Virus record (IMG/VR): IMGVR_UViG_3300023174_000044
Coordinates: 186,001-250,000 of that record
Strand: one strand, 5' to 3'
DNA length: 64,000 nucleotides
DNA from: a virus
In this document: positions 5,242 through 39,086 of the stretch, one piece after another
How positions within the stretch are numbered: the stretch's first letter is position 1
Layout: each line of letters begins with the position of its first letter
Program-made: the position numbers and the translations under genes
Notes under the pieces: model-generated
Databases searched by the model: none
What the model saw: only the letters and a program-made list of their open reading frames with translations
Told to the model about the DNA's origin: nothing

Positions 5242-5260
5242 GTGTTGTTTTTACGCAACA
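5242..5260. repeat. 19-bp direct repeat, copy 2
   Basis: Second copy of gtgttgtttttacgcaaca (see 4727-4745). It overlaps the last codons of the gene ending at 5251. Confidence 0.8.
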
Positions 5261-5952
5261 AAATCTATGTAACCAGATTCAGCAGTCCAGTCCATAGTTG
5301 ACAATTTCTTTGCAATAGCAGTCAGTGTTTCTTCTTTAGAAAACTCTGAATTCTTTTTAATCCAACGTTGGTGGTTCTTTGCCAACACATCAATGTTGTT
5401 TGTCCAACCTTGTTGCTGTAGGTTGTTGACAAAATTTTCTTTAAACAACAAATTAAAATTAATGTTTTTACCGTAGGTATTTGCAACACGATCGTACATG
5501 GTCTGCATCCATAATCTTTTTGATTGTTCAAACCAATACGAAGCGGCTTTTTCAAACTTTCCATTGAGGCAAAGAGTTTTAGCTATCTCAAACCAAGATT
5601 CGCCAGGTGCCACTTTAATTGCAAGTTTTTGTAGTTTCATTTGTCTTAGAACAACTTGTTCTTGCACTTGTGGATCAGTGACTATAATATTAATTAATGA
5701 CCAGTTGCTGTTGATAATTGGCTCAAATAAATGTGTGCTAACAAATCCATTTGGGGGTGTTGGCAATTGTTGAACAGCATCTTCCACAGACATTTCGTTG
5801 TCTTGTATTTTTCTTTCAAACTTTTTTAAAGAATAGTCAGAGGGAACACTGATACCAGACATGCGAGTTAACAAAATACCATTGCAACTGGTCACAAATA
5901 AATCACCGGCGGTGCCTCCGTTGTAGGAAACAAAAGTATAATCAGTATTCAT
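5251..5952 (-). CDS. Possible P-loop/sulfotransferase-like protein, 233 aa
   Basis: I use the ATG at 5952 (MNTDYTFVSYNGGTAGDLFV), overlapping the upstream stop by 11 bases; the frame stays open to 6000. The N-terminal strand plus GGTAGD loop resembles the nucleotide-binding turn of sulfotransferase-like phage proteins, and the rest is helical with several Trp. The gene lies in a unit with an AsnB-like ATP pyrophosphatase and an SGNH hydrolase, which fits a role in modifying a surface sugar or metabolite. The family call is weak. Confidence 0.55.
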   Translation of the reverse strand: MNTDYTFVSYNGGTAGDLFVTSCNGILLTRMSGISVPSDYSLKKFERKIQDNEMSVEDAVQQLPTPPNGFVSTHLFEPIINSNWSLINIIVTDPQVQEQVVLRQMKLQKLAIKVAPGESWFEIAKTLCLNGKFEKAASYWFEQSKRLWMQTMYDRVANTYGKNINFNLLFKENFVNNLQQQGWTNNIDVLAKNHQRWIKKNSEFSKEETLTAIAKKLSTMDWTAESGYIDFVA

Positions 5953-6973
5953 TTTTATGTTTGCAGATATGAGAAAGCCAACTGGGATTCCAGCGATCAA
6001 TTAAATCCTTCTGTAACTGTCCTGTGGCCAGTTGTTTAATCAAATCCTCTGTGTCTAGACTGATCACCGTCAAAAACAATTCAGGGTCTCTGTAAGGATC
6101 TAGTATTTGAAAATCACCAAACCATTGCTGGAACGTTGGTCTCGAATGCAATTTAACAATTGCTGATCTCAATAAATTAACATTGTCAAATGTATGCTCA
6201 GGGCCATATGTTGCAGTATCGTAACAGTCAAATTTTTGATCAACTAATTTTGAAGATTGTGCGTACAGTTCACCGTGATGCAAGAGTGCCAGATCGCCGT
6301 AGTATCCTGTGACCAAGTTGTTAATATTGTAAAATGCCGGCTTGACATTGTCTATCTGACTATACGGATAATCTATTGTTTCTTGAGTGTCACTGTAGAC
6401 CACGTCAAATGGAAGTTTGTTAAAATAAGACCTTGTGTGATTGGCCACAACTCCAGTAAACTCAACCTGATGATGCAATGCCAAAAACGCAAGAGTACTG
6501 GAGTCAAGTCCGCCCGAGAATGCAATCTGTGTTTTATCACTGATGTTTGCGCAAGTTTGTAAATTAGACAACAACCTTAGCTCAATGTCAACAAGTACCT
6601 GTTCCCAAGTTTTAATTTCAGGAACAATAGCAGATTTGATTTTTTTATACTGTAACCAATTGATTCCCAGCTCGTCGTGACAATTAAATTTAACCGTCAA
6701 CGGAGATATTGCTGTGTCTATGTACTTGTTAATATTGGTAAGAATAATGCCTTTGCCAAACCCAAGATTAAAATCTTTATAAAAACTAAACTCAACTGTG
6801 ACTTCTTCGTCACCAAACTCAAACTCAACAAAGTTTCCACCGTGCTCGCCTAAACGATAACCAAAAAATTTATCTTGATTAATATTATAGTAGGCATTAA
6901 CCCAAAGATGAGGGGCTAGTTGATGACGATATGGGAACTCTGTGAGCTCTTGTTCAGCGATGCAAAAGTACAT
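5942..6973 (-). CDS. AsnB-like N-type ATP pyrophosphatase, 343 aa
   Basis: The PP-loop FSGGLDSSTLA near residues 153-163 is the ATP-pyrophosphatase signature of asparagine synthetase and related amide-forming ligases. The protein lacks Cys at position 2 (it begins MYFC), so the N-terminal 130 residues are not a working glutaminase. It may use free ammonia, another amine, or an unknown partner. TAATG coupling links it to the 187-aa gene. A true asparagine synthetase would be about 500 aa, so a tailoring enzyme for a sugar or small molecule is as likely. Confidence 0.75.
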   Translation of the reverse strand: MYFCIAEQELTEFPYRHQLAPHLWVNAYYNINQDKFFGYRLGEHGGNFVEFEFGDEEVTVEFSFYKDFNLGFGKGIILTNINKYIDTAISPLTVKFNCHDELGINWLQYKKIKSAIVPEIKTWEQVLVDIELRLLSNLQTCANISDKTQIAFSGGLDSSTLAFLALHHQVEFTGVVANHTRSYFNKLPFDVVYSDTQETIDYPYSQIDNVKPAFYNINNLVTGYYGDLALLHHGELYAQSSKLVDQKFDCYDTATYGPEHTFDNVNLLRSAIVKLHSRPTFQQWFGDFQILDPYRDPELFLTVISLDTEDLIKQLATGQLQKDLIDRWNPSWLSHICKHKNEY

Positions 6974-7536
6974 TAAGGTTGTTGAATAAGATAGTTATAA
7001 TACTCGTAGTGCTTGTCTAACGTCCAGGCGGCTAGATCAACGTCGGTGCCATCGTGAGTTCGAAATCTTGCATTAAAAATATCAGTATAACGTTGCCACG
7101 GATTCCAAACACTTGGAGTATGACTGCCCCAACCCGATTCCTTAAGCAAATGATGTTTTTCTCTGCTGAGTTTTACAGTGGGACAATTAAGGGCTTGATC
7201 AATAGTAATTAGTCCTACAATCATTAAGTCCCGAATTCTCGCGGCAGGAATCAAGTGTTCAAAGTCTGTTTCAACGTCGGCGCCAATTTCGTGATAATGA
7301 GCACCCATGCCGTCACGTTGTTTAATGCAGTACTCATGACACCTTCTTAGCAAATTGTCCATGTCATCTCTGACCTGGCTCAGAGTCTGTTGGTCATTGG
7401 TACTGTTGCGATATATGTCTAGCACAGAAACTAAACGATCATGACAGTAGCGATAAGTGGCTCGGTATGCTTCTTGGTTACGGGGCGTCTTTGAATACAC
7501 TGGCGCAACAAAGTTTTCAAGTAGTTGTTGATTCAT
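6973..7536 (-). CDS. Hypothetical protein, 187 aa
   Basis: Soluble, His- and Tyr-rich helical protein; residues 60-130 carry C, H and E clusters (RRCHEYCIKQRDGMGAHYHE) that could bind a metal. It lies between the SGNH hydrolase and the AsnB-like ATPase, overlapping the former by 20 bases, so it probably works in the same pathway. No family recognised. Confidence 0.6.
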   Translation of the reverse strand: MNQQLLENFVAPVYSKTPRNQEAYRATYRYCHDRLVSVLDIYRNSTNDQQTLSQVRDDMDNLLRRCHEYCIKQRDGMGAHYHEIGADVETDFEHLIPAARIRDLMIVGLITIDQALNCPTVKLSREKHHLLKESGWGSHTPSVWNPWQRYTDIFNARFRTHDGTDVDLAAWTLDKHYEYYNYLIQQP

Positions 7537-8104
7537 CTATTAATCCTATCAAGCGTTTGGCCCATTGTGCATGACAGTTGGCGCTGTGATGCATTCCATC
7601 ACTGCCTTTGCTATCTACTATCCAAGATAGTCCTGGTAGTTTTTCATCAACATGCAAAATAATATTTTGATTGTTTAATACTGTATGGTATTGTTGATTG
7701 ATGTTTTCAATCATGATGTTAACAATTGGAACCTTGGCAAGATTACACAATAAATTACAAGTGATGATTGTTTGTAGCCAAGGATTATAAAAGTTTTCTT
7801 CACCTGATGTCAATAGCTGTTTAAAAACAGCGCCATTACTTTGAATGTTTTCGTTTGCGGCATAGCCATTGATCCAGGTGGTACGTCTAAAAACATTAGG
7901 CCACTGGCATATTACAAAATCAGGTAAATTTATTTTTAGTTCATGAACTAAATGTTTTTCTACATGAAAACAATTACCGCCGGGTGTTCCTAAATTTTTT
8001 ACAGAAAGTTGATAATGTTTGCTTAGTAAGCTTACATAGCATTCGTCAGGATTTACACCCACACCTGCGGTATGGCTACACCCTAGTGCAAGTGCGTGGT
8101 TCAT
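7517..8104 (-). CDS. SGNH/GDSL-like hydrolase, 195 aa
   Basis: Block I appears as LGCSHTAG near residue 8 (Ser nucleophile). Block II-III features follow as GTPGGNC near residue 40. The C-terminal DGMHHSANCHAQWAKRL supplies the Asp-x-x-His dyad. Length fits a minimal SGNH esterase or acetyl-esterase. No signal peptide is seen. With the adjacent AsnB-like and P-loop proteins it may edit acyl or other groups on a surface glycan; substrate unknown. Confidence 0.75.
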   Translation of the reverse strand: MNHALALGCSHTAGVGVNPDECYVSLLSKHYQLSVKNLGTPGGNCFHVEKHLVHELKINLPDFVICQWPNVFRRTTWINGYAANENIQSNGAVFKQLLTSGEENFYNPWLQTIITCNLLCNLAKVPIVNIMIENINQQYHTVLNNQNIILHVDEKLPGLSWIVDSKGSDGMHHSANCHAQWAKRLIGLIDESTTT

Positions 8105-9141
8105 TGCATTAGTCCCGGAGCAACAACACCTTCTTCAACGCCCATCTTGGAACCGTCACCGTGGAATGGTAGTTCCAGTTTGCCGCCACCAATGATGTGT
8201 ACTTCTCGCAGGAAGTTGCTCATTGCAGTTGGCGCAGTCCAAGTGGCGCCATCACCTTTGTAAAAGGCCCATTGTTGGCGTCCTTTGGCATGCACTACAC
8301 CGGAGTCATTCCATACATCTGAAATGCTGACACACAATTTACGCATCCAGCCATCGGGCATGGTCAATCCTGCACTACCAGCCAGGCGGAATAGCTCGTA
8401 CAAGCCAATAAAGCAACCTTGATCAATTTCTTCTTGATCAGGCCATGTGTGTTGAATTGCATCAAGTACATTAAACAACACTCGACCCGTTGGGTCTGCG
8501 TCAATTACTTTTTGTGCATACTTAAAGTGACTGAAGAAGTAGTCACTGTCGCCACGCAAGGCCACGCTCTTACGAGTGTTTTTATCTTCAAGGTCAATAC
8601 CCAGTGCATCAAATTGATCTTGCATTTTACGGGCACGAACAGTTTTGGTTTCTCTACTGCCATTTTTGTAACGCACCAACGCATTGCGATGAAGGTCGCC
8701 AGGGTTAAGGCGTTTGACTCCGGTGTCGTTGAGCATTTCAAATGCATAGCTGGGGAAGTTAGGGTCGTCTGTTTCTACCACAGCACAAGGTACTTCCGTG
8801 TAGCCCAGAATGGCCGCGGCCAGGGTACGGTGCTGTCCATCGTATGTTTCCACCCTGTCACGACCCAACACACGACATGCGCTCACCGGGGAGCAGATGC
8901 GAGGATCCCATTTTTTCATGATGCTAAGAATGTGCTTGTGAATTACATCACGCTGGACTTCATAGTCAATCCATAAAATATCAATTTTTTCTTGGTTGCT
9001 GGTTGGAAAATGCACAGCCAAAGCCTGGACTCGATTGCGCATTGCATCAATCTGTCCTTTGGTGATATTTAATTCTTTGATGATTGTAGCTTCAACTTCT
9101 GATGCTACTTCGGTGAGTTTACGTGTGAGGCGTTTAGACAT
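8101..9141 (-). CDS. ParB/Srx-type DGQHR domain protein, 346 aa
   Basis: The core VETYDGQHRTLAAAILGY (about residues 97-114) is the ParB/sulfiredoxin-like motif found in ParB N-domains and DGQHR proteins; these bind CTP or nucleotides in characterised members. There is no obvious HTH after it, so it is not a plain partition ParB. T4-like phages often carry such proteins without a known role. AAAGAAAGAT precedes the ATG, and a promoter (9221-9249) lies just upstream, making it the head of the 9.1-5.2 kb unit. Confidence 0.75.
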   Translation of the reverse strand: MSKRLTRKLTEVASEVEATIIKELNITKGQIDAMRNRVQALAVHFPTSNQEKIDILWIDYEVQRDVIHKHILSIMKKWDPRICSPVSACRVLGRDRVETYDGQHRTLAAAILGYTEVPCAVVETDDPNFPSYAFEMLNDTGVKRLNPGDLHRNALVRYKNGSRETKTVRARKMQDQFDALGIDLEDKNTRKSVALRGDSDYFFSHFKYAQKVIDADPTGRVLFNVLDAIQHTWPDQEEIDQGCFIGLYELFRLAGSAGLTMPDGWMRKLCVSISDVWNDSGVVHAKGRQQWAFYKGDGATWTAPTAMSNFLREVHIIGGGKLELPFHGDGSKMGVEEGVVAPGLMQ

Positions 9142-18943: not shown

Positions 18944-19384
18944 TTACAACAACCAACCTAGATCTAGACGCTGATGTATCCAGGGATAAATTGGCGTTTC
19001 AAAATCCATATACCAAATGCCATTCCAGCCCAGGTAATTGGCATGTACGATCTTATCCTTGTTTCCTAGCCAATCGTCAGGATATGTTGGCTGATATTTA
19101 GAATAAACTTTGAAATCTGATTTGATATTTTGAAATCTAACAGAATCAATAATCACTGCCATGTCTAGTTCTGGCGGCTGTATTTCTTTATAATTTTTAT
19201 TAAAAAACTCAATGCTTAGTCTATGCTGTCCAGGATACACCGACTGTACAATTAGAAAATCCTGGCTATGTGAATCTGTAACTGTCCATAACACATGATC
19301 ATCAAGCTTGATAGTATATTCAGGAACAGTTGTTACCATTCTTGTACTGACTGAAAGATTAATTTTGATATCGTTTTTTTGCAT
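18944..19384 (-). CDS. Beta-rich protein, possible carbohydrate-binding domain, 146 aa
   Basis: I use the ATG at 19384 (MQKNDIKINLSVSTRMV); the frame is open to 19396. Strands such as YTIKLDDHVLWTVT, YPGQHRLSIEFFNKNY and LDMAVIIDSVRFQNI suggest a jelly-roll similar to Ca-dependent carbohydrate-binding modules. It overlaps the radical SAM gene by 26 bases. Virion decoration or a glycan-binding partner is possible; uncertain. Confidence 0.55.
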   Translation of the reverse strand: MQKNDIKINLSVSTRMVTTVPEYTIKLDDHVLWTVTDSHSQDFLIVQSVYPGQHRLSIEFFNKNYKEIQPPELDMAVIIDSVRFQNIKSDFKVYSKYQPTYPDDWLGNKDKIVHANYLGWNGIWYMDFETPIYPWIHQRLDLGWLL

Positions 19385-20666
19385 AACCGTACTCATCTAA
19401 AAATTCTGCTAGTTCTGGCACAAACTCACGCAAGTCATGTTCTCGCAATTGATCAAACTTAGTACAATAGTCAGTTAGCTCTTGTCTAACAGTTTCTATA
19501 TTGACTCCAGTCTGGTACAACAATCCTATAACCATTTGTGCATGATGGGATATTGATTCTACCACTCTTGATTGATTTCTAACATTAATATCGTGCAGTA
19601 TATCTTTATCTTTAAGAATAAATCTTGACAGTCTTGATTTAATTATTTCCTTAGCTGAATTAGGAAGGTAACAGGGTCTAAAAAACTCTGGACGATGCAG
19701 GACATTACTGTCAATAATAATAGAATGTTCTAGACAAAAATCTAAAAGTTTATCGTAATGCATCAGACTTAACAGTTGAGGAACTGAGCGTAATACTGTG
19801 CTAAATTTTTCATTGGTGCAAGCCAGATATTGTCGAATGTTGTCGACAATCTTGTTAGTTTTTCCTGGGTATCGAATATAATCATTGCTAATATCAAGGT
19901 TTTCAATGCTGATTTCAATCTGCACAGATTTAAATTTTTCTAATTGTGTCATCAACTCAGGGTCGTAGATAGTTCCATTGGTTACAAAAGTCAGATGAAA
20001 ATCTGTGTGATTGTTATTGCACAAGAACGTTATCAAATCTCTAAATCGCTTGTGGTACAACGGTTCTCCGCCCATGACATGCAGACAAATAATATCATTG
20101 TTGTTTAACAAGTGATCACAGAATTTTCCCCAGGTGGGTGTATCGGTCCAGTCGTGTTTGATCGGAATACTGGAATCTCTTAGACCAATTTTATTCAAAT
20201 CAGCGGCTAAGAGTGTGCTGTTAAATCCATCACACATTACGCAGGCCATATTGCAAATATTACTAAAACTGATATGATAAAATCTTGGACTAGATTTATC
20301 AGCATTAATAATTTTCCAAACAGGACTTTCTTCGGCGCTTTGTTGGAAATCCTGTCCCGGAAATATAGCAGCCTGCAGATTTCTGCGACTACGAAATGTT
20401 ACTTCACTATGCTGATCTTCTTTATAACAACGATGACATCGGGCAACAGAGTCTCCGTTGAGTATGTTTTTTCTTGCTGATTGAACTGATTTTGAATTTG
20501 AAAAATATTCATCCACAGTCATTAAATTAATATGCTCATTGCCCGGTAAGTCAGCACGATCAGCAAAATGACAAAAGTTCATTGTGCCGTCAGAATTGAT
20601 CCTGACTTCAGTCCAGGGACTGATACAAAAAGTTTGTTGGTTGATATTCAATTTATTTTGTTCCAT
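19359..20666 (-). CDS. Radical SAM enzyme with twitch/SPASM-like clusters, 435 aa
   Basis: The core motif CNMACVMC (about residues 137-144) is a CxxxCxxC [4Fe-4S]/SAM site, followed by a glycine-rich MGGEPL strand. Cysteines near the N-terminus (CISPWTEV... C...CHRCYKED) look like auxiliary cluster ligands of twitch-type phage radical SAM proteins. Such enzymes make radical modifications on peptides, sugars or nucleotides. The substrate is unknown. The phage also carries IscU and IscA, which could supply its clusters. Confidence 0.8.
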   Translation of the reverse strand: MEQNKLNINQQTFCISPWTEVRINSDGTMNFCHFADRADLPGNEHINLMTVDEYFSNSKSVQSARKNILNGDSVARCHRCYKEDQHSEVTFRSRRNLQAAIFPGQDFQQSAEESPVWKIINADKSSPRFYHISFSNICNMACVMCDGFNSTLLAADLNKIGLRDSSIPIKHDWTDTPTWGKFCDHLLNNNDIICLHVMGGEPLYHKRFRDLITFLCNNNHTDFHLTFVTNGTIYDPELMTQLEKFKSVQIEISIENLDISNDYIRYPGKTNKIVDNIRQYLACTNEKFSTVLRSVPQLLSLMHYDKLLDFCLEHSIIIDSNVLHRPEFFRPCYLPNSAKEIIKSRLSRFILKDKDILHDINVRNQSRVVESISHHAQMVIGLLYQTGVNIETVRQELTDYCTKFDQLREHDLREFVPELAEFLDEYGYAKKRYQN

Positions 20667-25709: not shown

Positions 25710-26417
25710 CTAAGTCTTTGCGCCGGAGAAATAATGTGCGGCGATCACCGACTGTACAAGGCTGTCTAGGCTGTTAACAATGGGTATGCCATCCTCAATG
25801 GAAATGTTGATACTCAAGGGCAATTCGGTACAGCCTAGAACCACAGCTTGTGCGCCACGATCGATCAAGCTATGAATTACTTTCATTAGCAACAACTGAG
25901 ATTCTGTAATCTTGCCGGCCTTGACCAGGTCAATAGCAGGTTGTACAAAAAAGTCCATTTCAGCACGATCTGGAACTATACATCTCCAGCCTTGTTGCTC
26001 TAGTCTTTCTTGATATAAACCATATTCTATTGTGCCTTGTGTGCCCATGATGCCAATGGTGGTATTGTCAAGCTGTAATTTACGGAGCTCGTCGGCTATG
26101 CTTTCTACTATGTGTAAGATGGGCACACCCATTTTGACCATGTCATTGTACCAAAAATGTGCTGAGTTACAAGGAATAACAATACTGTCACACCCTAGTG
26201 TTTTTAATGCCTGTATACCTTGTAACATCAACAGTAATGGCCGATTGTCGCCGGCCTGTATACTTGTACTACGATCAGGAATTCTTGGCTCATTCCACAA
26301 CACAAAAGGTATGTGTTCTTGATCGCAAGTGGCCGGCGACTGCCTGATTAATCTAGTTACAAACTCTGCTGACGCTGCCGGTCCCATGCCTCCTAGTATG
26401 CCAAGTTTTTTTACCAT
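25710..26417 (-). CDS. Asp/Glu racemase family protein, 235 aa
   Basis: ATG at 26417 (MVKKLGILGGMGPAASAEFV). GGMGPAAS plus the two catalytic Cys, C83 in PCNSAH and C196 in GCTELP, match aspartate/glutamate racemases. These interconvert L- and D-Asp or Glu. It is the last gene of an apparent acidic amino-acid unit (binding protein, symporter, sensor-like protein). D-Glu or D-Asp feeds peptidoglycan, so it might change wall synthesis or nitrogen supply. Confidence 0.8.
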   Translation of the reverse strand: MVKKLGILGGMGPAASAEFVTRLIRQSPATCDQEHIPFVLWNEPRIPDRSTSIQAGDNRPLLLMLQGIQALKTLGCDSIVIPCNSAHFWYNDMVKMGVPILHIVESIADELRKLQLDNTTIGIMGTQGTIEYGLYQERLEQQGWRCIVPDRAEMDFFVQPAIDLVKAGKITESQLLLMKVIHSLIDRGAQAVVLGCTELPLSINISIEDGIPIVNSLDSLVQSVIAAHYFSGAKT

Positions 26418-26476
26418 ATTAAAATTAATACTATTAGTATGACTATGATGCCAGCAATGACTCCTGGTAGTCTCAT
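26411..26476 (-). CDS. Tiny transmembrane peptide, 21 aa
   Basis: MRLPGVIAGIIVILIVLILI plus W: one membrane helix and nothing else. The ATG overlaps the upstream stop (ATGA) and the frame ends inside the racemase start region. Coupled spacing supports expression. It could regulate the symporter or sensor above it, as tiny membrane peptides often do. Evidence is limited by size. Confidence 0.5.
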   Translation of the reverse strand: MRLPGVIAGIIVILIVLILIW

Positions 26477-27078
26477 TTTTTATCAAACAGTAAACTTGAC
26501 GCAACAATTAGTACAGTCTGTGCTAACTCTACTTCTGTTGGTTGCTCTTTCCAACCTACACTTATTTGTCCTATAAACAATCCAGGGTCTGCTGGCACGC
26601 TTATGCGACACATGTATGTTACTCCATAGTTTTTATAAGTAAATCCAATATAACTTTGTGGTGTTAGATACGGACCGCATGGAATTTTGCCTGACATTAA
26701 TCCAATTACATCTTCGTTGTTGCTGTGATTCTTAGTAAGCAACCCCACATTGGTTCCATCATGGACTGTGTCATGTCCTGAGCCTCGTGTAGTTAGATAT
26801 ACTAATTTTCTGGTGTTCAGTAATGTGTTAACTTGGAATACAGCCACAAGCTCTGCATCTGTATTCTTTAGTATAAAATTGACTGCTTGTTCATATTTGC
26901 CGTTCATCTTGGGCAAGGCCTGTTGAGCACGATAACTTGCCATGAAGTTATCTTTTTCAGTATAGGCTACCCATCCTAAAAAAGTGAATAGGCAAAGGAA
27001 CACAACTGTAAATAGGCGAAATGGACTTTCGCCTATAAACTTTAACAGTTCAAGCAGTAACTCTTTAAGTTTGTCCAC
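26473..27078 (-). CDS. Membrane-anchored GAF-like sensor protein, 201 aa
   Basis: One transmembrane helix (about residues 20-39) follows a short charged N-terminus. The remaining 150 residues (DAELVAVFQVNTLLNTRKLV, LMSGKIPCGPYL, SYIGFTYKNYGVTYMCRISV) have the strand order of a GAF-like ligand-binding domain. It overlaps the symporter gene by 14 bases. It may sense a metabolite or modulate the transporter. No output domain is present. Confidence 0.65.
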   Translation of the reverse strand: MDKLKELLLELLKFIGESPFRLFTVVFLCLFTFLGWVAYTEKDNFMASYRAQQALPKMNGKYEQAVNFILKNTDAELVAVFQVNTLLNTRKLVYLTTRGSGHDTVHDGTNVGLLTKNHSNNEDVIGLMSGKIPCGPYLTPQSYIGFTYKNYGVTYMCRISVPADPGLFIGQISVGWKEQPTEVELAQTVLIVASSLLFDKK

Positions 27079-28342
27079 CGGCAGTTACCTCTTTGTCGCA
27101 TACAAATGCTGTGACTGCTACGTTGCCGTGTACATGACTTGCTGTGCGAATCATATCCATTAATGGATCAACTGCTATCAACAATACCAATACAGCTTCG
27201 CTTGGTAGTTTTAACAAATCACAAACAACTGCTACAGTAGCAACTGTTAAGATACCTGTTGTACCTGCACTTGCTAATCCGGCTAAAATACTACCAAACA
27301 ATACAACTGCTAAACCGGTAAGTCCTAGAGGAGCATCATAGATGTTGGCAATGAATACTGTAGCAATAGCATAGTAAACAATGCTACCAATACGGTTAAC
27401 AGTGAAACTTAGTGGAACTGTTAGTTCAACTCCACCTTTGTCAAAATGTAGTTTATGTAAGGCTTCTTGTGCGTATGGAATACAAGCCAATGAACTACGT
27501 GAACTAATAGCAACAATTAATGTTTCTTTAGTTTCACGGATAACAGTGGCAAGGCTTAATCCACTACGTGCCCAAATCACAGCAGTACCTGCGGCAACTA
27601 CTAATAGTCCGCCAATGAACTGTTGGAACACAAAGTCAAACATTGTTAAGAAAATACCAACTCCAACTTTACCAACTTGACTGCTGATCATTGCCAACAA
27701 TGCAAATGGTAGGAAGTAGTTTAAGAATTTGAAAATACTAATACTTGCTTGTTGAACACTCTTCAGTACTTCAACCAACATACGTTGTCCTTCTGTTTTC
27801 AAGTGACCCAGTGCAACTCCAAATATCAAACAGAAGATAACAATCTTCAAACTTTCACCATTGTTCAGTGTGGCAAAAATGTTTTCTGGGATAAACTTCT
27901 CTGCCATTTTACCAGCACTGACTGCGGGTGCCGTTGACATTGGTTCGTGAAGGGTAATGTTTAATTCAGTTCCGGTATCTTTGTTGTTGACTAGTACACC
28001 AAATTCTGTTTTCTTCTCAGGAGTCATTTCTGTACCTGTTACTAGTACAGTTCCTACACCAATAACAGCAGCCAAGAACATACTGCCAACAAAGCCCACA
28101 ATAATTTTGCGAATTAATTCCTGACTACCTTCTTTTTGTAATAGCCCAATGATACCAACTAGAATAGTTGCTAACAAAAATGGTAGTACAACTACCTTTA
28201 GCAAACTAATATAGATACTACCAATACTGTCAAGACCCATACTAAACTCAGGTGCGTAAACGCCGCCTAAAATACCTGCGATAATTGATCCTAAAATAGT
28301 CCAAGGACTAGTCAGGAAACTTTTTAAATGTGTTGTTGTCAT
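27065..28342 (-). CDS. Dicarboxylate/amino acid:cation symporter (DAACS), 425 aa
   Basis: About eight membrane spans with re-entrant loops. Family signatures are visible: SSRSSLACIP (HP1 serine-rich loop), NRIGSIVYY (NMDGT-like TM7), AGLASAGTTG (HP2) and DPLMDMIRTASHVHGN (TM8 substrate/Arg motif). These transporters import glutamate, aspartate or C4-dicarboxylates with Na+ or H+. TM7 motif is changed (NRIGS for NMDGT), so the substrate may differ. A phage-encoded symporter of this family is unusual. Confidence 0.85.
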   Translation of the reverse strand: MTTTHLKSFLTSPWTILGSIIAGILGGVYAPEFSMGLDSIGSIYISLLKVVVLPFLLATILVGIIGLLQKEGSQELIRKIIVGFVGSMFLAAVIGVGTVLVTGTEMTPEKKTEFGVLVNNKDTGTELNITLHEPMSTAPAVSAGKMAEKFIPENIFATLNNGESLKIVIFCLIFGVALGHLKTEGQRMLVEVLKSVQQASISIFKFLNYFLPFALLAMISSQVGKVGVGIFLTMFDFVFQQFIGGLLVVAAGTAVIWARSGLSLATVIRETKETLIVAISSRSSLACIPYAQEALHKLHFDKGGVELTVPLSFTVNRIGSIVYYAIATVFIANIYDAPLGLTGLAVVLFGSILAGLASAGTTGILTVATVAVVCDLLKLPSEAVLVLLIAVDPLMDMIRTASHVHGNVAVTAFVCDKEVTAGGQT

Positions 28343-32555: not shown

Positions 32556-32843
32556 CTAAGCAAGCATCCTAATCAGGCCAATACTGTCAATGGTGGTTAG
32601 CAATAGGTAGTTAGCCAACATGCCAAATGATTTCCTAGTATAAGCAGCCCAAGCATAGAGAGCGCAGCCAGCAATCCAAATAGGGTACAGAATAAGTAGA
32701 GGCGGAGTTGGGACTGTTGTTGCCATAGTAATGGAACAGCCAATGCTAATAGCCCAAGCGAGCAACTCAATAACAAAACGAATTCTATTAGACTTAAAGT
32801 CATCTTGTATCCAATCAAATGTAGGTTTTAAAAGTTCATTCAT
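32556..32843 (-). CDS. Conserved three-span phage membrane protein, 95 aa
   Basis: MNELLKPTFDWIQDDFKSNR then LLAWAISIGCSITMATTVPT and YAWAAYTRKSFGMLANYLLL. This WAISIGCS.TMA...P.PP...YP.WI.GC...AWAAYTR.SFGMLANYLLL pattern is a conserved T4-like cyanophage inner-membrane protein. Role unknown. A 5' fragment of the same gene lies in the scar ORF at 33891-33977. Confidence 0.8.
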   Translation of the reverse strand: MNELLKPTFDWIQDDFKSNRIRFVIELLAWAISIGCSITMATTVPTPPLLILYPIWIAGCALYAWAAYTRKSFGMLANYLLLTTIDSIGLIRMLA

Positions 32844-33898
32844 GATTTGTTGGGGAAAAAATCCTGCATCACACCTTCTCTGTGCAGGTCAAGTGTTACA
32901 CAATGTATGCCACCGTCCCAAAAATATCTATGTCTAAACGGCACAATGTGAGGAGTAATACCATATCTATCCAAGGCATCAAACACTTGTTTGTTGTAGT
33001 TAAACACCATGACATTCTTGGGATCAATAATCAACATGTTGACATCAAACACAGTTTCTTCTACGTATCCTGTCCAATGTCCCAGCCAGGTTTCAATAGT
33101 TTCAATTACATCATTGTCGTATTCAAAACCTGGGATCCACCACTTGCCGCGATTTTTTTGTTTTAAATCTAAAAATGGTTTAACCTTGCTCCAACTTTGG
33201 TCTTGAAGATACACCACTTCCCATCCAGGAAAAGTTTTTTCATAAGTGGGGATGTCACACAAACTAATAATCAATCCAGGACAAACAGGGCAGAATACGC
33301 CATCGGCATGACCACCAGTTTTAACTATATGATTTCTTGTATGTAAAAAATTTTCATTAATTTCTTTTTCAAGATTTCTTACTTGATCTATATTGGGCAT
33401 TGTTCCAAAATATAAATCTTTTCCTATCCTAGATATCATTGCACCATTGATAGTTGGGTGATTACTTATTTTAATTTGATTGCCCTGAGATTGTACATGT
33501 TTTACAATATCTCCATAACAGTCTTGCATGGTGGCAGTTAGCTGACTGCTATTCCACGTGCTGATATTTGTGTTAGAACCGAGAAACATTTCTGAATCTG
33601 GCTTAGATGTATAAAAATCTTCTCCAGCCATGATCATAATATCCCTCGGACACATTGGTGGTGGAATATATCTTTCGCCTAATATTTTTTCTGTAGGAAA
33701 ATTAGGCCTTAGTATCTCTACTCCAAATTCTTGCAATTTTTCGATTATGTGCTGGTAATCTTCTTCTGTTTCGGTGGCTATTTTTTCCATGAGTTTACGC
33801 ACATGTGTTACCTTAATCCATGAATAAAATTCAGGTGGGTAGCTACGACCTACTACACAAACTTTCAAAGGATCCCAGTGTTGGTACACACTATACAT
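32840..33898 (-). CDS. Amidinotransferase-family protein, copy 2, 352 aa
   Basis: PENTEIN fold of glycine/inosamine amidinotransferases and arginine deiminases. Start MYSVYQHWDPLKVCVVGRSY, CPRD near residue 85, GGHADG near residue 200 (His), and the nucleophile Cys333 in GGIHCVTLDLHREG. Such enzymes move an amidino group from arginine to an amine or hydrolyse it. The paralogue at 33974-35113 is a tandem duplicate. Overlaps the membrane gene by four bases (ATGA). Confidence 0.8.
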   Translation of the reverse strand: MYSVYQHWDPLKVCVVGRSYPPEFYSWIKVTHVRKLMEKIATETEEDYQHIIEKLQEFGVEILRPNFPTEKILGERYIPPPMCPRDIMIMAGEDFYTSKPDSEMFLGSNTNISTWNSSQLTATMQDCYGDIVKHVQSQGNQIKISNHPTINGAMISRIGKDLYFGTMPNIDQVRNLEKEINENFLHTRNHIVKTGGHADGVFCPVCPGLIISLCDIPTYEKTFPGWEVVYLQDQSWSKVKPFLDLKQKNRGKWWIPGFEYDNDVIETIETWLGHWTGYVEETVFDVNMLIIDPKNVMVFNYNKQVFDALDRYGITPHIVPFRHRYFWDGGIHCVTLDLHREGVMQDFFPNKS

Positions 33899-33977
33899 TT
33901 ACATGTCTTTCATAAACCTGTTCACTGTTAAAGTTATCTTGAATACATTCAGGTGTGGGCTTTAGTAGTTCATTCAT
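33891..33977 (-). pseudogene. Chimeric duplication-scar ORF, 28 aa
   Basis: MNELLKPTPECIQDNFNSEQ followed by VYERHVNV. The first 16 residues copy the start of the 95-aa membrane gene (MNELLKPTFDWIQDDF); the last 11 equal the end of the UV endonuclease (SEQVYERHVNV). It lies between two amidinotransferase copies and keeps the same ATGA-type overlaps at both ends. It is a remnant of the tandem duplication, and is probably still translated as a coupling peptide. Confidence 0.8.
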
Positions 33978-35113
33978 TTTTTATTTGGAAAAAAGTCTTG
34001 CATCACACCTTCTCTGTGTAGATCAAGTGTTACACAGTGGATGCCGCCGTCCCAGAAATATCTGTGTCTAAAATTAATAACGTGTGGAGTAATTCCATAT
34101 CTACTTAGTGCTTCAAACACGCGATCGTTGTAATTGAACACAATGACATTTTTTGGATCAATAATCAGCATGTTGACGTCAAACACAGTTTCCTCAACAT
34201 ACCCGGTCCAATGTCCTAGCCAATTTTCTACAACATCAACCACATTCTGATCGTATTCAAAACCCGGTATCCACCATTTACCGTTGTTTTTGGCTTTTAA
34301 ATCTTTGAATGGTTTAATGTGGTCCCAACTCTGTCCTGGGAGATAAACAACTTCCCAGCCTGGAAAAGTTTCTGCATAAGTTGGTACATCTTTTAAACTA
34401 ATAATTAGTCCAGGACAAACCGGACAGTAAACAGCATCTCCGTGACCACCGGTATTGATAACATGTGTACGATTATTTGGAAACTCTTGGTTGACCACTT
34501 GTTTGATCTTGTTCTGATCGTCAGTGTACGATTCTGTGGCAAAGTATAAGTCTTTACCAATTCGAGATGCCATCATTCCTTGCACACAGGGATGAGGACT
34601 GGTCTTTATTATATTACCCTGTGATCGAATACGATCAAATATTTTTTTATAAGGGGAGTGATGACGAAATACTTCTTCTTTGCTTGCATCAAGCCAATTG
34701 TGTACTTCAAGGCATTCCTGTTGTACATGACTTGGTAAATCAGTGATGTCTACTGATTTTTCTGGCCAGCTTGGATCTTTAACTACGTTATAGAATTCTT
34801 CCCACTGATTTTTTGGTCTATAAAATGTCTCACCAATCATAACCATAATGTCTCTGGGTTGCAGAGGAGGAGGTGTAAAAGGAGTCCTTGTCTGATTAAA
34901 CCATTCTACAGGAATCTCAGGACGCAATACCTCTACACCAAAAGTTTCTAGCACCGTTGCAATTTTTTGCAGATCTTCTTCTGTTTCAATGGCAATACGC
35001 TCAAACAGTCTGCGCACATGTGGGACTTTGATCCAGTTATAGAACTCAGGTGGGTAGCTACGACCTACTACACAAACTTTTAATGGGTCCCAGTGTTGGT
35101 ACACACTATACAT
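33974..35113 (-). CDS. Amidinotransferase-family protein, copy 1, 379 aa
   Basis: Same motifs as copy 2: VVGRSYPPEFYNWIKVPHVR near the start, QPRD near residue 100, TGGHGDAVYCPVCPG (His), and nucleophile Cys360 in GGIHCVTLDLHREG. The extra 27 residues form an insertion near 105-150. The start overlaps the uvdE stop. The two copies differ by many substitutions, so the duplication is not very recent or is under divergent selection. Confidence 0.8.
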   Translation of the reverse strand: MYSVYQHWDPLKVCVVGRSYPPEFYNWIKVPHVRRLFERIAIETEEDLQKIATVLETFGVEVLRPEIPVEWFNQTRTPFTPPPLQPRDIMVMIGETFYRPKNQWEEFYNVVKDPSWPEKSVDITDLPSHVQQECLEVHNWLDASKEEVFRHHSPYKKIFDRIRSQGNIIKTSPHPCVQGMMASRIGKDLYFATESYTDDQNKIKQVVNQEFPNNRTHVINTGGHGDAVYCPVCPGLIISLKDVPTYAETFPGWEVVYLPGQSWDHIKPFKDLKAKNNGKWWIPGFEYDQNVVDVVENWLGHWTGYVEETVFDVNMLIIDPKNVIVFNYNDRVFEALSRYGITPHVINFRHRYFWDGGIHCVTLDLHREGVMQDFFPNKK

Positions 35114-36902: not shown

Positions 36903-38176
36903 TCAACAGCCTTTAAAGATTGCCAACGAAATGCGCCAATACATACCCAGGCAAACGGAGTGTTGGGTTTTGGATCACTGTTAAACACAATGTCTCCGCG
37001 TGAGCCACTATATCCAGGAACTGTTGGTTCAAATGCAATACGATGTTTGTCAATTCTAATTTTTTTGACAGTGGTCTGACCTTCGGCATCTATATCAATG
37101 CTGGCCTGTCTATTAACACCGATCGACAATCCTTGTTTCCGACCTGTTCCAAAATATGCTTGATCTTTAGAAATTTTGCCCGACAACAACGATACTTCTT
37201 CGTCCCACACACTCAGAGCCATCTCTGGTTGATTGGTATTGATACCCACACGTTTATTGATAACCGCTAGAGTATCAAAGATTTTGGCCTGGCCCAAAAC
37301 AGCAAGTTCTCTAAGAGTGCCAACTTTTTGTAAATTTGATTCAACAATTGTTGGATTAATACTGTCATTTGCAATAAGTGGTTTTCCGTTTAGTGTAACT
37401 TCACTGAAGTCAATTCCCCCAGCCTTGGCAATATCCAATACTTGATTAACTAAATGATTTTTCCATTCATCGTTGGATAGTTCTAGTGTGAGTGACGCAA
37501 TTTTTGTAGCAAGTTCATTCCACGAATTGTTATCGGTGTTGATTTGTCCTTTTACAACAAGATTTTGTACTGTTAATGTGTCATCAACAATGGCATTTTT
37601 AGAAATAAGATTATTTTCTACTATCACAGTATCGTCAGTGACAATTAATTCTAATTTGGTTGATTGATCAATAATGCCTGAAGTTTTAAAATTGGTAATT
37701 AGTCGATCTTGCCAACGAGTAATACCGTTGTCAATTTCATTAACTAACATTTTGTTTAGATCTATTCCGCTGATCTTTTGCAAAAGTTTTAGTGACATTT
37801 GCTTGTGAATAGTATTTTCAATTTTGTTTAACCAAGTAGAATCAACTACTAGATTATCAATTGTAGACTCAACAAAAGTCTGCACAGAATTATCAACTGC
37901 CATTGATATTTTACTAGCATCTATGTATGAATCTAATCCAGGCACATGCCCTTGTTCAAATAATTTAGTAACACTATTTTGTACAGTGGATACCAAATCA
38001 GGAACTGTTGATATATTGCTAAATTTTGCAGTAATCCTATCTTGTACATGTTTTGTAATTTGTTCTTCAATGGCATTGAGCCATTTGCCGTTGCTCATGA
38101 CGGCAGCAACTTGTTCAGCAACTGCTTTTGCTATTTGTTGTTCTACTAACTCTGTTACCGATTTGGTGTCAAGCAT
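36899..38176 (-). CDS. Tail fibre-like protein, 425 aa
   Basis: Long repetitive helix/strand regions with Asn/Asp-rich turns (QRITAKFS..., ISKNAIVDDTLTVQNLVVKG) end in a domain with AKIFDTLAVINKRVGINTNQ and QAYFGTGRKQGLSIGV, as in T4-like long fibre or baseplate-associated trimers. No enzyme motif. Likely a virion fibre or adapter protein. Confidence 0.7.
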   Translation of the reverse strand: MLDTKSVTELVEQQIAKAVAEQVAAVMSNGKWLNAIEEQITKHVQDRITAKFSNISTVPDLVSTVQNSVTKLFEQGHVPGLDSYIDASKISMAVDNSVQTFVESTIDNLVVDSTWLNKIENTIHKQMSLKLLQKISGIDLNKMLVNEIDNGITRWQDRLITNFKTSGIIDQSTKLELIVTDDTVIVENNLISKNAIVDDTLTVQNLVVKGQINTDNNSWNELATKIASLTLELSNDEWKNHLVNQVLDIAKAGGIDFSEVTLNGKPLIANDSINPTIVESNLQKVGTLRELAVLGQAKIFDTLAVINKRVGINTNQPEMALSVWDEEVSLLSGKISKDQAYFGTGRKQGLSIGVNRQASIDIDAEGQTTVKKIRIDKHRIAFEPTVPGYSGSRGDIVFNSDPKPNTPFAWVCIGAFRWQSLKAVE

Positions 38177-39086
38177 GTTCTCTCCATAAATCTAATGTCG
38201 TACAGTGAAAACCGCCGCCTAATGTTCTACTATGTCGTAATTCCAACGGAACTACTGTAAAACCTCGTTGCTCTAGTATGCGTATCAACTCTGTTTGCTT
38301 TTGGTCAACAATCACTGTTGTTGGGTCAACCACTAACATATTTAAGGCAATCCACTTGCTAGCATACGGGTAATTATAGAAGTCTTGCTCAATAACTTCA
38401 TCTATATAAATTTTATCCCATTTTTCAAAAATTTTAGGGCAATTTGATGAATTAACCCTGCTACCATTCAACAATACAAGGCCTTCGCGCAATGCGGTAA
38501 TTGTAGAGTCAATATGCACACCACTATAAAAATTACAAATTTCAATCTCCACATCCGGGAACTGTTGTTGTAGCCAATCATATGCGGCACGATTGCCTGA
38601 TGGTGACTCTAAAAATAGCATCTTATCGTTTAGACGCAGTAGATTGGCCGCATCCAAAATCATACCTTCATTCCTGGGCATGTGTAGATAATTTGGTGAC
38701 AAGTCAACAATGTTGTGATAGCATTGTAATTCCATGTTTCGACATGGATACATCATGGCAGTATCTACAATGGTGTCTTTATAAACTAGCAATCTGTCAC
38801 GTGGGCAATAGTTGTACATTCCATCATGTGTTTGAAAGTTAAGTGGTTCCGGACGCACAACTTCTACACCTAGGCTGATCAGGGTTGTTGCCAACTTATC
38901 CAGATCTTCATTGGCTTCGTCAATGATCCTTTGAGGCACAGGACCACGTGGAACAGGAGTTTTTTTCCAGGAAGTTTTGTTACTTTCCAATTTAAACACA
39001 GGATCGTTCACAGGCCAGTTTGCATCTGTGGCAGATCCAACTACACAAGTTTTAAGTTTATCCCATTCGTTTTGGCTATAAATCAT
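38169..39086 (-). CDS. Amidinotransferase-family protein, third paralogue, 305 aa
   Basis: MIYSQNEWDKLKTCVVGSAT, CPRDRLLVYKD near residue 95, a GVHIDSTI loop near 195 (His) and Cys295 in GGGFHCTTLDLWRE. It resembles StrB-type inosamine-phosphate amidinotransferase more than the other two copies. The phage therefore has three members of one guanidino-group family. The overlap with the tail fibre gene is eight bases. Confidence 0.75.
   Translation of the reverse strand: MIYSQNEWDKLKTCVVGSATDANWPVNDPVFKLESNKTSWKKTPVPRGPVPQRIIDEANEDLDKLATTLISLGVEVVRPEPLNFQTHDGMYNYCPRDRLLVYKDTIVDTAMMYPCRNMELQCYHNIVDLSPNYLHMPRNEGMILDAANLLRLNDKMLFLESPSGNRAAYDWLQQQFPDVEIEICNFYSGVHIDSTITALREGLVLLNGSRVNSSNCPKIFEKWDKIYIDEVIEQDFYNYPYASKWIALNMLVVDPTTVIVDQKQTELIRILEQRGFTVVPLELRHSRTLGGGFHCTTLDLWREHA

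What the first reader, a model, noticed from the sequence alone, without database searches (positions are those of the whole stretch)
5251..8104. AsnB-like ATP pyrophosphatase without a glutaminase Cys, with an SGNH hydrolase
The 343-aa protein has a clean SGGLDSS PP-loop but no Cys2 and a short divergent N-domain. Neighbours are an SGNH hydrolase, a P-loop protein and a metal-rich unknown. This resembles tailoring operons for surface glycans or small molecules rather than amino-acid synthesis.
Basis: partly seen in the sequence, partly recalled or inferred. Interest (0 to 1): 0.55.

Follow-up and report, generated by a model that had tools for sequence, protein, structure and literature searches.

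The report
Glutaminase-dead AsnB-type ligase in jumbo phage
A giant bacterial virus carries an asparagine-synthetase-like enzyme whose ammonia-making half has shrunk and lacks its catalytic cysteine, so it probably joins an activated acid to free ammonia or another amine; distant relatives in other large phages often sit beside a radical-chemistry gene, and the reported four-gene group is not a fixed operon.

Summary
Window 5942-6973(-) encodes a 343-aa AsnB-type PP-loop protein (SGGLDSS) without Cys2. A 22-sequence alignment, a moderate-quality AlphaFold model and structure search indicate a shortened, vestigial class-II glutaminase domain followed by an AsnB / beta-lactam-synthetase-type domain. 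dN/dS 0.12 between two phage lineages suggests a working protein.

The four-gene tailoring operon is not supported. The 187-aa 'metal-rich' gene follows a ParB-like gene in 71 of 74 related loci, so it is core. The slot between them varies: SGNH here; an HNH-looking gene, a GIY-YIG-looking gene or nothing in others read. Close copies of the PP-loop and last genes occur only in two near-identical lineages.

Following homology outward gave the more interesting result: a sister family of glutaminase-dead AsnB-like proteins (29 viral loci, 20 distinct genes; none confirmed in a pattern-limited scan of 84,980 prokaryote genomes). It adjoins a radical SAM gene in 19 of 29 loci (13 of 20 distinct; 9 of 16 without the four discovery cases). 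The window's protein is a remote outlier and lacks that neighbour.

Best reading: an ATP-dependent carboxylate ligase using ammonia or an amine directly. A glycan or small-molecule substrate is plausible from context, unproven.

The parts
8101..9141 (-). ParB-like core phage gene, 346 aa
   Evidence: weak PHROG ParB-like hits; relatives in 74 loci
7517..8104 (-). SGNH hydrolase, 195 aa, accessory gene in the slot between two core genes; overlaps ParB-like by 4 nt
   Evidence: Ser10 and His172 each in 46 of 47 aligned rows; slot differs in the loci read; dN/dS 0.15
6973..7536 (-). Core phage protein, 187 aa, HNH-like DFEH...N...KH positions; partner of ParB-like
   Evidence: follows ParB-like in 71 of 74 loci; alignment A10; dN/dS 0.02
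5942..6973 (-). Glutaminase-dead AsnB-type PP-loop ligase, 343 aa
6614..6973 (-). Vestigial, shortened class-II glutaminase domain (residues 1-120), no Cys2
   Evidence: profile match E 5e-4, above 2000 shuffles; AsnB / beta-LS / CarA structures align from residue 1
6497..6517 (-). PP-loop SGGLDSS (residues 153-159)
6293..6310 (-). TGYYGD motif (residues 222-227), counterpart of AsnB SGxGAD (counterpart recalled)
   Evidence: G223, G226 and D227 in 22 of 22 rows
5954..5956 (-). Lys340 codon, invariant KN; falls near residues 440-444 of beta-lactam / carbapenam synthetase
   Evidence: 22 of 22 rows; aligned ranges
5251..5952 (-). Unknown 233-aa protein (ATG start), overlaps the PP-loop stop by 11 nt; no relatives found outside these phages
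   Evidence: dN/dS 0.09
19359..20666 (-). Radical SAM/SPASM protein of another subfamily, beside the 20584-22272 gene, a few genes from whose counterpart phage G004 carries the AsnB-like/radical SAM pair

Best explanation
The 343-aa protein is an AsnB-type ATP-dependent ligase. Its C-terminal PP-loop domain adenylates a carboxylate with ATP, releasing pyrophosphate, and transfers it to free ammonia or another amine, because its glutaminase half is only a shortened remnant without the nucleophilic cysteine. It is made together with an SGNH hydrolase and a small unknown protein, all inserted around a core ParB-like/187-aa gene pair of a jumbo phage. Shown: gene content, missing Cys2, retained synthetase motifs, fold similarity of a moderate model, purifying selection, non-conservation of the four-gene order. 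Inferred: catalytic activity, ammonia or amine as nucleophile, and a sugar or small-molecule acceptor (the last step is the weakest).
For: Profile of the sister family (window protein left out) finds it at E 4.5e-9; N part E 5e-4 and C part E 2e-9, both best in a set with 2000 shuffles. Asn_synthase hits 8 of 22 and GATase_7 2 of 22 family rows at E 0.1 or better. hhalign lays TPLRDLEIF on the VPFLD motif of E. coli AsnB, though with only 30% probability. AF2 model with 22 sequences, pTM 0.60; the 12 entries with highest Z (10.1-11.8) are AsnB/ASNS, beta-lactam synthetase, carbapenam synthetase or TsnB9, 11 of 12 aligned from residue 1; the other 38 entries listed start at residue 115 or later. 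Invariant D157, G226, D227, D296, K340, N341 in 22 of 22 rows. dN/dS 0.118.
Against: The model is only moderately confident (pLDDT 59); stretches under 50 lie in the synthetase domain (177-216, 225-262) and in the N-domain itself (30-47, 83-91, 100-116). The glutamate after GD, the RSP and the QHWH motifs kept in most relatives are absent here. The protein itself matches Asn_synthase only at E 0.12. PDB sequence profiles gave nothing significant. Z margins over the best single-domain PP-loop entry are small (10.1-11.8 against 9.6). No substrate or partner is identified.
Confidence: 0.6

Rival explanations
1. The gene is part of a surface-glycan tailoring set: the ligase amidates a uronic acid or an amino-acid-modified sugar (for instance from the phage's own UDP-sugar dehydrogenase) and the SGNH protein acylates or deacylates the same glycan.
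For: Window has UDP-glucose/GDP-mannose dehydrogenase and GT2 genes. In phage G035 (L152) three SGNH genes stand beside a carbamoyltransferase, a few genes from a DegT aminotransferase and an epimerase. In phage G023 (L148) the order is SGNH, two small genes, another AsnB-like type, an amidinotransferase look-alike, one more gene, cytidylyltransferase, PfkB kinase, epimerase.
Against: In the window the sugar genes are 23-34 kb away; each context above is one phage; the four-gene order is not conserved.
Confidence: 0.3
2. It is a remnant of the AsnB-like/radical SAM system of sister phages that has moved and now does something else, or little.
For: Very long branch (6.6 changes per column), shortened N-domain, several family motifs lost, no radical SAM neighbour.
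Against: dN/dS 0.118 over two lineages, intact frame, overlapping genes.
Confidence: 0.15
3. It is a PP-loop enzyme of base or tRNA modification (QueC-, TilS- or LarE-like) rather than an amide ligase.
For: Weak PHROG QueC-like / PAPS reductase and NCBIfam LarE / TilS hits around the PP-loop.
Against: Of the 50 entries listed, only AsnB-family structures reach residues before 115; the cysteines after residue 120 are at 141, 250 and 337, not the cluster recalled for QueC.
Confidence: 0.08

Closest known systems
Beta-lactam synthetase and carbapenam synthetase (1JGT/1MC1, 1Q15/1Q19)
   Same: Two-domain AsnB fold; glutaminase domain without working Cys (recalled); Z 10.6-11.8 over most of the model.
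   Different: 343 aa against about 500; N-domain shortened; no clavam/carbapenem genes noticed nearby; 10-16% identity.
TsnB9 / FzmA-type AsnB homologues of natural-product pathways (7YLZ)
   Same: AsnB homologues proposed or shown to move a nitrogen group onto a carboxylate (passages of PMC6133997 seen); Z 11.5 for TsnB9.
   Different: They take the nitrogen group from a glutamyl carrier (same passages); the window protein has no Cys2.
Glutamine-dependent asparagine synthetase AsnB
   Same: PP-loop SGGLDSS, SGxGAD-like and PFLD-like motifs.
   Different: No Cys2, N-domain about 120 aa instead of about 200 (recalled).
Phage proteins annotated asparagine synthase (e.g. Achromobacter phage Motura) and PHROG 1550 QueC-like
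   Same: Foldseek E 2e-4 for A0A514CSI5; PP-loop also near position 147 in phrog_1550.
   Different: 10-12% identity in the three best viral fold matches; phrog_1550 matches only 25 residues.

Membership tests
Glutamine-dependent asparagine synthetase (AsnB) | N-terminal nucleophile Cys2 of the class-II glutaminase | tested here: not met
   Residue 2 is Tyr; no Cys2 in 20 of 20 full-length rows, itself included
Glutamine-dependent asparagine synthetase (AsnB) | Complete glutaminase domain | tested here: not met
   N-domain about 120 aa; even against its relatives it lacks about 16 residues after GY and 7 before
AsnB-type synthetase superfamily (AsnB, beta-LS, CarA, TsnB9) | PP-loop SGGxDS and SGxxxD-like motifs in a synthetase domain | tested here: met
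   SGGLDSS and TGYYGD; G155, D157, G223, G226, D227 in 22 of 22 rows
AsnB-type synthetase superfamily (AsnB, beta-LS, CarA, TsnB9) | Two-domain fold, Ntn-like N-domain plus PP-loop domain | tested here: met
   Foldseek E 1e-4 to 5e-4, 13 of 13 matches under 0.001; Z 10.1-11.8, 11 of 12 entries from residue 1; model of moderate quality
Beta-lactam / carbapenam synthetase | Cyclisation of a beta-amino acid to a beta-lactam | not testable with these tools
   needs enzyme assay
QueC | Zinc-binding cysteine cluster after the PP-loop domain (recalled) | tested here: not met
   Cys only at 4, 98, 141, 250, 337
Lasso-peptide cyclase system | Precursor peptide gene beside the AsnB-like gene | tested here: inconclusive
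   Beside 18 sister genes the recurrent small ORFs looked like out-of-frame/antisense ORFs or known phage genes (judged by eye); the window locus was not screened for a precursor
Sister AsnB-like/radical SAM pair of phages | Adjacent radical SAM gene | tested here: not met
   No radical SAM gene next to 5942-6973; the one profile match in the window is at 19359-20666
SGNH hydrolase (7517-8104) | Block I Ser and block V His | tested here: met
   S10 and H172 each in 46 of 47 aligned rows

The most novel reading that the evidence does not exclude
Jumbo phages own a virus-only family of glutaminase-dead AsnB-like ligases that work with a dedicated radical SAM enzyme as a two-enzyme pathway making an undescribed amide modification of a host or virion molecule; the window's protein is a runaway member that has swapped its radical SAM partner for an SGNH hydrolase and a new small protein.
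Probability: 0.25. Interest if true: 0.72.

Novelty: new variant of a known kind. Interest (0 to 1): 0.45.

Why it matters
AsnB-type enzymes without glutaminase activity make some unusual amide bonds, beta-lactams among them. A family found here only in viral records, often next to radical SAM genes in phages that can carry ten or more such genes, points to chemistry that phages may use and that my searches found no assay of. The pair is small, contiguous and expressible, so its product is directly testable.

Tried and rejected
Rejected: the four genes as a conserved tailoring operon. Rejected: the PP-loop proteins of about 255-320 aa found by PF00733 in these phages (L100-L115, L117) as kin of the finding; they read like NAD synthetases (by eye, no family search). 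Rejected: ClpP as functional partner of the sister family; the same ClpP occurs in records without a match to that family, e.g. G013, G017, G027, G047, so the adjacency looks positional.

Looked for and not found: relatives in 50,697 GenBank phages of the window's PP-loop, last, SGNH and 187-aa proteins (E 1), P0006 (E 0.01), L146 (E 0.1) and L183 (E 1); L148, another AsnB-like type, gave one weak hit, E 0.09. Sister-family members in 84,980 prokaryote genomes: 68 pattern hits, none confirmed (a scan limited to two peptide patterns). Failed: AlphaFold with two sequences (pLDDT 30). PDB sequence searches: nothing significant (best E 0.65, 0.054, 0.15, 0.057; TsnB9 appears at E 1.7).

Literature: listings only (titles and starts of abstracts) for searches on jumbo phage, asparagine synthase/synthetase, radical SAM, PP-loop and SGNH; none of the listed titles describes the pair, but the 7 papers listed that hold the terms were not opened. 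Searches were on known AsnB homologues; of PMC6133997 passages were seen. Most subscription papers are outside the library, and bioRxiv is not held as such.

Against the pairing: 10 of 29 sister loci (7 of 20 distinct genes) have no radical SAM neighbour. Four of the 13 adjacent cases (L175, L176, L194, L198) are the ones in which I first saw it and from which the radical SAM profile was built; without them it is 9 of 16, chance 2e-8 to 5e-7. The estimate takes 700 bp per gene, uses radical SAM density of other records and ignores shared ancestry. Of 19 records searched for that radical SAM profile, 6 gave none, among them both searched records of the L178 type (57 and 149 kb). The tree does not cluster the adjacency label (6 changes, shuffled mean 6.0). 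Two of 13 neighbours (L182, L194) are a distant radical SAM subfamily (25 and 24% identity to the first row). The 18 sister rows also share a cysteine in GNFC (residue 68-72); the window protein lacks it, but in the sister family a role of that cysteine is not excluded.

Full report
WHERE IT IS. The window is bases 186,001-250,000 of a 262,308-base virus record. The genes lie on the minus strand in the order ParB-like (8101-9141), SGNH (7517-8104), 187-aa protein (6973-7536), PP-loop protein (5942-6973), small unknown (5251-5952). Reading frames overlap by 4, 20, 1 and 11 nt, with the last start placed at ATG 5952 as in the second lineage. Co-translation is therefore likely.

OBSERVATION. The PP-loop protein has SGGLDSS at 153-159, Tyr as residue 2 and no cysteine shared with its relatives. 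By itself it matches curated families only below threshold (ATP_bind_3 E 0.055, Asn_synthase E 0.12) and nothing real in PDB sequences. Close relatives were found in four other IMG/VR records, 96-100% identical, which makes two lineages including the window's.

THE NEIGHBOURS. Using the ParB-like gene as an anchor gave 74 loci from IMG/VR records. The 187-aa protein follows it in 71 of 74; the other three (L083, L086, L087) end within 4 bases of the ParB match. It is thus a core gene and not part of a tailoring set. In seven loci read, the slot between the two holds SGNH in L014, an HNH-looking gene in L018 and L019, a GIY-YIG-looking gene in L054, another gene in L029, nothing in L017 and no listed ORF in L044 (HNH and GIY-YIG by eye). 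Close copies of the PP-loop gene and the last gene are in 4 of 50 related records searched, all near-identical; for the PP-loop gene two more records gave remote matches at E 1e-4. SGNH relatives occur in 15 of 50 records at E 0.01 or better, up to four per record.

WHAT THE PP-LOOP PROTEIN IS. One of the remote matches (P0006, in G004) fits both ends of the protein in order (N-terminal piece E 0.013). A profile of the shared C-terminus then found more, and a profile of those, without the window protein, found 29 viral loci with 20 distinct genes and no confirmed prokaryote match. The same profile finds the window protein at E 4.5e-9 through about 64 C-terminal positions. Splitting the family profile, the N part matches residues 1-120 at E 5e-4 and the C part matches the rest at E 2e-9, each on top of a set with 2000 shuffled sequences (the columns come from alignment A8, which included the protein). 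Of the 22 rows, 8 hit Asn_synthase and 2 GATase_7 at E 0.1 or better. hhalign places TPLRDLEIF on VPFLD of E. coli AsnB, with 30% probability only.

STRUCTURE. With 22 sequences AlphaFold gives pLDDT 59 and pTM 0.60. Foldseek's 13 matches under E 0.001 are all asparagine synthetase, carbapenam synthetase, beta-lactam synthetase or TsnB9. By VIA-align these families take ranks 1-12 of the 50 entries listed (Z 10.1-11.8, rmsd 5.2-8.0 A, 244-293 residues), 11 of 12 starting at model residue 1, whereas the other 38 begin at residue 115 or later, the best at Z 9.6. So the N-domain is most likely a reduced glutaminase fold, though parts of it are low-confidence. Model residue 1 pairs with residue 3 of 1CT9, so there is no place for the nucleophilic cysteine. 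Invariant Lys340 falls near residues 440-444 of beta-lactam and carbapenam synthetase, where I recall their essential lysine (recall, not tested).

IS IT ALIVE? Between the two lineages dN/dS is 0.118 for the PP-loop gene, 0.150 SGNH, 0.089 last gene, 0.027 ParB-like and 0.020 the 187-aa gene. All are constrained; core and accessory genes differ by several fold.

THE SISTER FAMILY. In 19 of 29 loci (13 of 20 distinct genes) the AsnB-like gene directly adjoins a radical SAM gene, in three arrangements: tail to tail, upstream on the same strand, downstream on the same strand. The partner carries a CxxxCxxC core and N-terminal cysteines. Radical SAM genes are frequent in many of these records: 9-19 matched stretches (some genes count twice) in 9 of 19 records searched, 1-2 in four, none in six. 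That density would give 5-8% chance adjacency; 13 of 20, or 9 of 16 without the four discovery cases, is far above it, though shared ancestry is not modelled. Seven of 20 distinct genes lack the neighbour. The window phage has other radical SAM proteins, one of them beside its 20584-22272 gene, near whose counterpart phage G004 carries the pair. A tree puts the window protein on a very long branch (6.6), apart from the other 18 rows (midpoint root, long-branch warning), so the radical SAM link must not be transferred to it without proof.

CONTEXT FOR FUNCTION. The window also encodes a UDP-sugar dehydrogenase, a GT2 glycosyltransferase, a fatty-acid desaturase and a 2OG-Fe(II) oxygenase-like protein just under the cut-off, and an amidinotransferase related to arginine:glycine amidinotransferase (PDB match E 1e-17). 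In phage G035 (L152) three SGNH genes stand beside a carbamoyltransferase and near DegT aminotransferase and epimerase genes. In phage G023 (L148) another AsnB-like type lies between an SGNH gene (two small genes away) and an amidinotransferase look-alike, followed after one gene by cytidylyltransferase, PfkB kinase and epimerase. This favours a tailoring role on glycans or small molecules without showing it.

VERDICT. Observation confirmed, interpretation partly supported. The likely mechanism is ATP-dependent amide formation with ammonia or another amine; the acceptor is unknown. New variant of a known kind.

Noticed in passing
G000:43,853-50,797; G035:318,412-324,287 (L152): Runs of five radical SAM genes in jumbo phages; 9 of 19 records searched show 9-19 matched stretches (some genes count twice), 6 of 19 none. 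In L152 three SGNH genes and a carbamoyltransferase follow.
   Followed up: partly
L175-L203: AsnB-like/radical SAM gene pair of phages, often right after a ClpP-like gene; the ClpP is also present in phages without the pair.
   Followed up: partly
window 32840-33898, 33974-35113, 38169-39086: Three look-alike amidinotransferase genes; 33974-35113 matches arginine:glycine amidinotransferase (E 1e-17) and, weaker, SxtG, HsvA and inosamine-phosphate amidinotransferase in the PDB. The other two were judged by likeness only.
   Followed up: partly
L100-L115 and L117; L163:15560-16390: NAD-synthetase-looking PP-loop genes recur in this phage group, including just outside the window.
   Followed up: no
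L145:8418-10140 and L146:10809-12700: A further AsnB-like type (about 385 aa) has an unknown gene (197 and 245 aa, homology untested) directly upstream with overlapping frames in both phages.
   Followed up: no
window 25710-28342: Asp/Glu racemase (Pfam E 3e-40) two genes from one that reads like a dicarboxylate symporter: unusual metabolic cargo for a phage.
   Followed up: no
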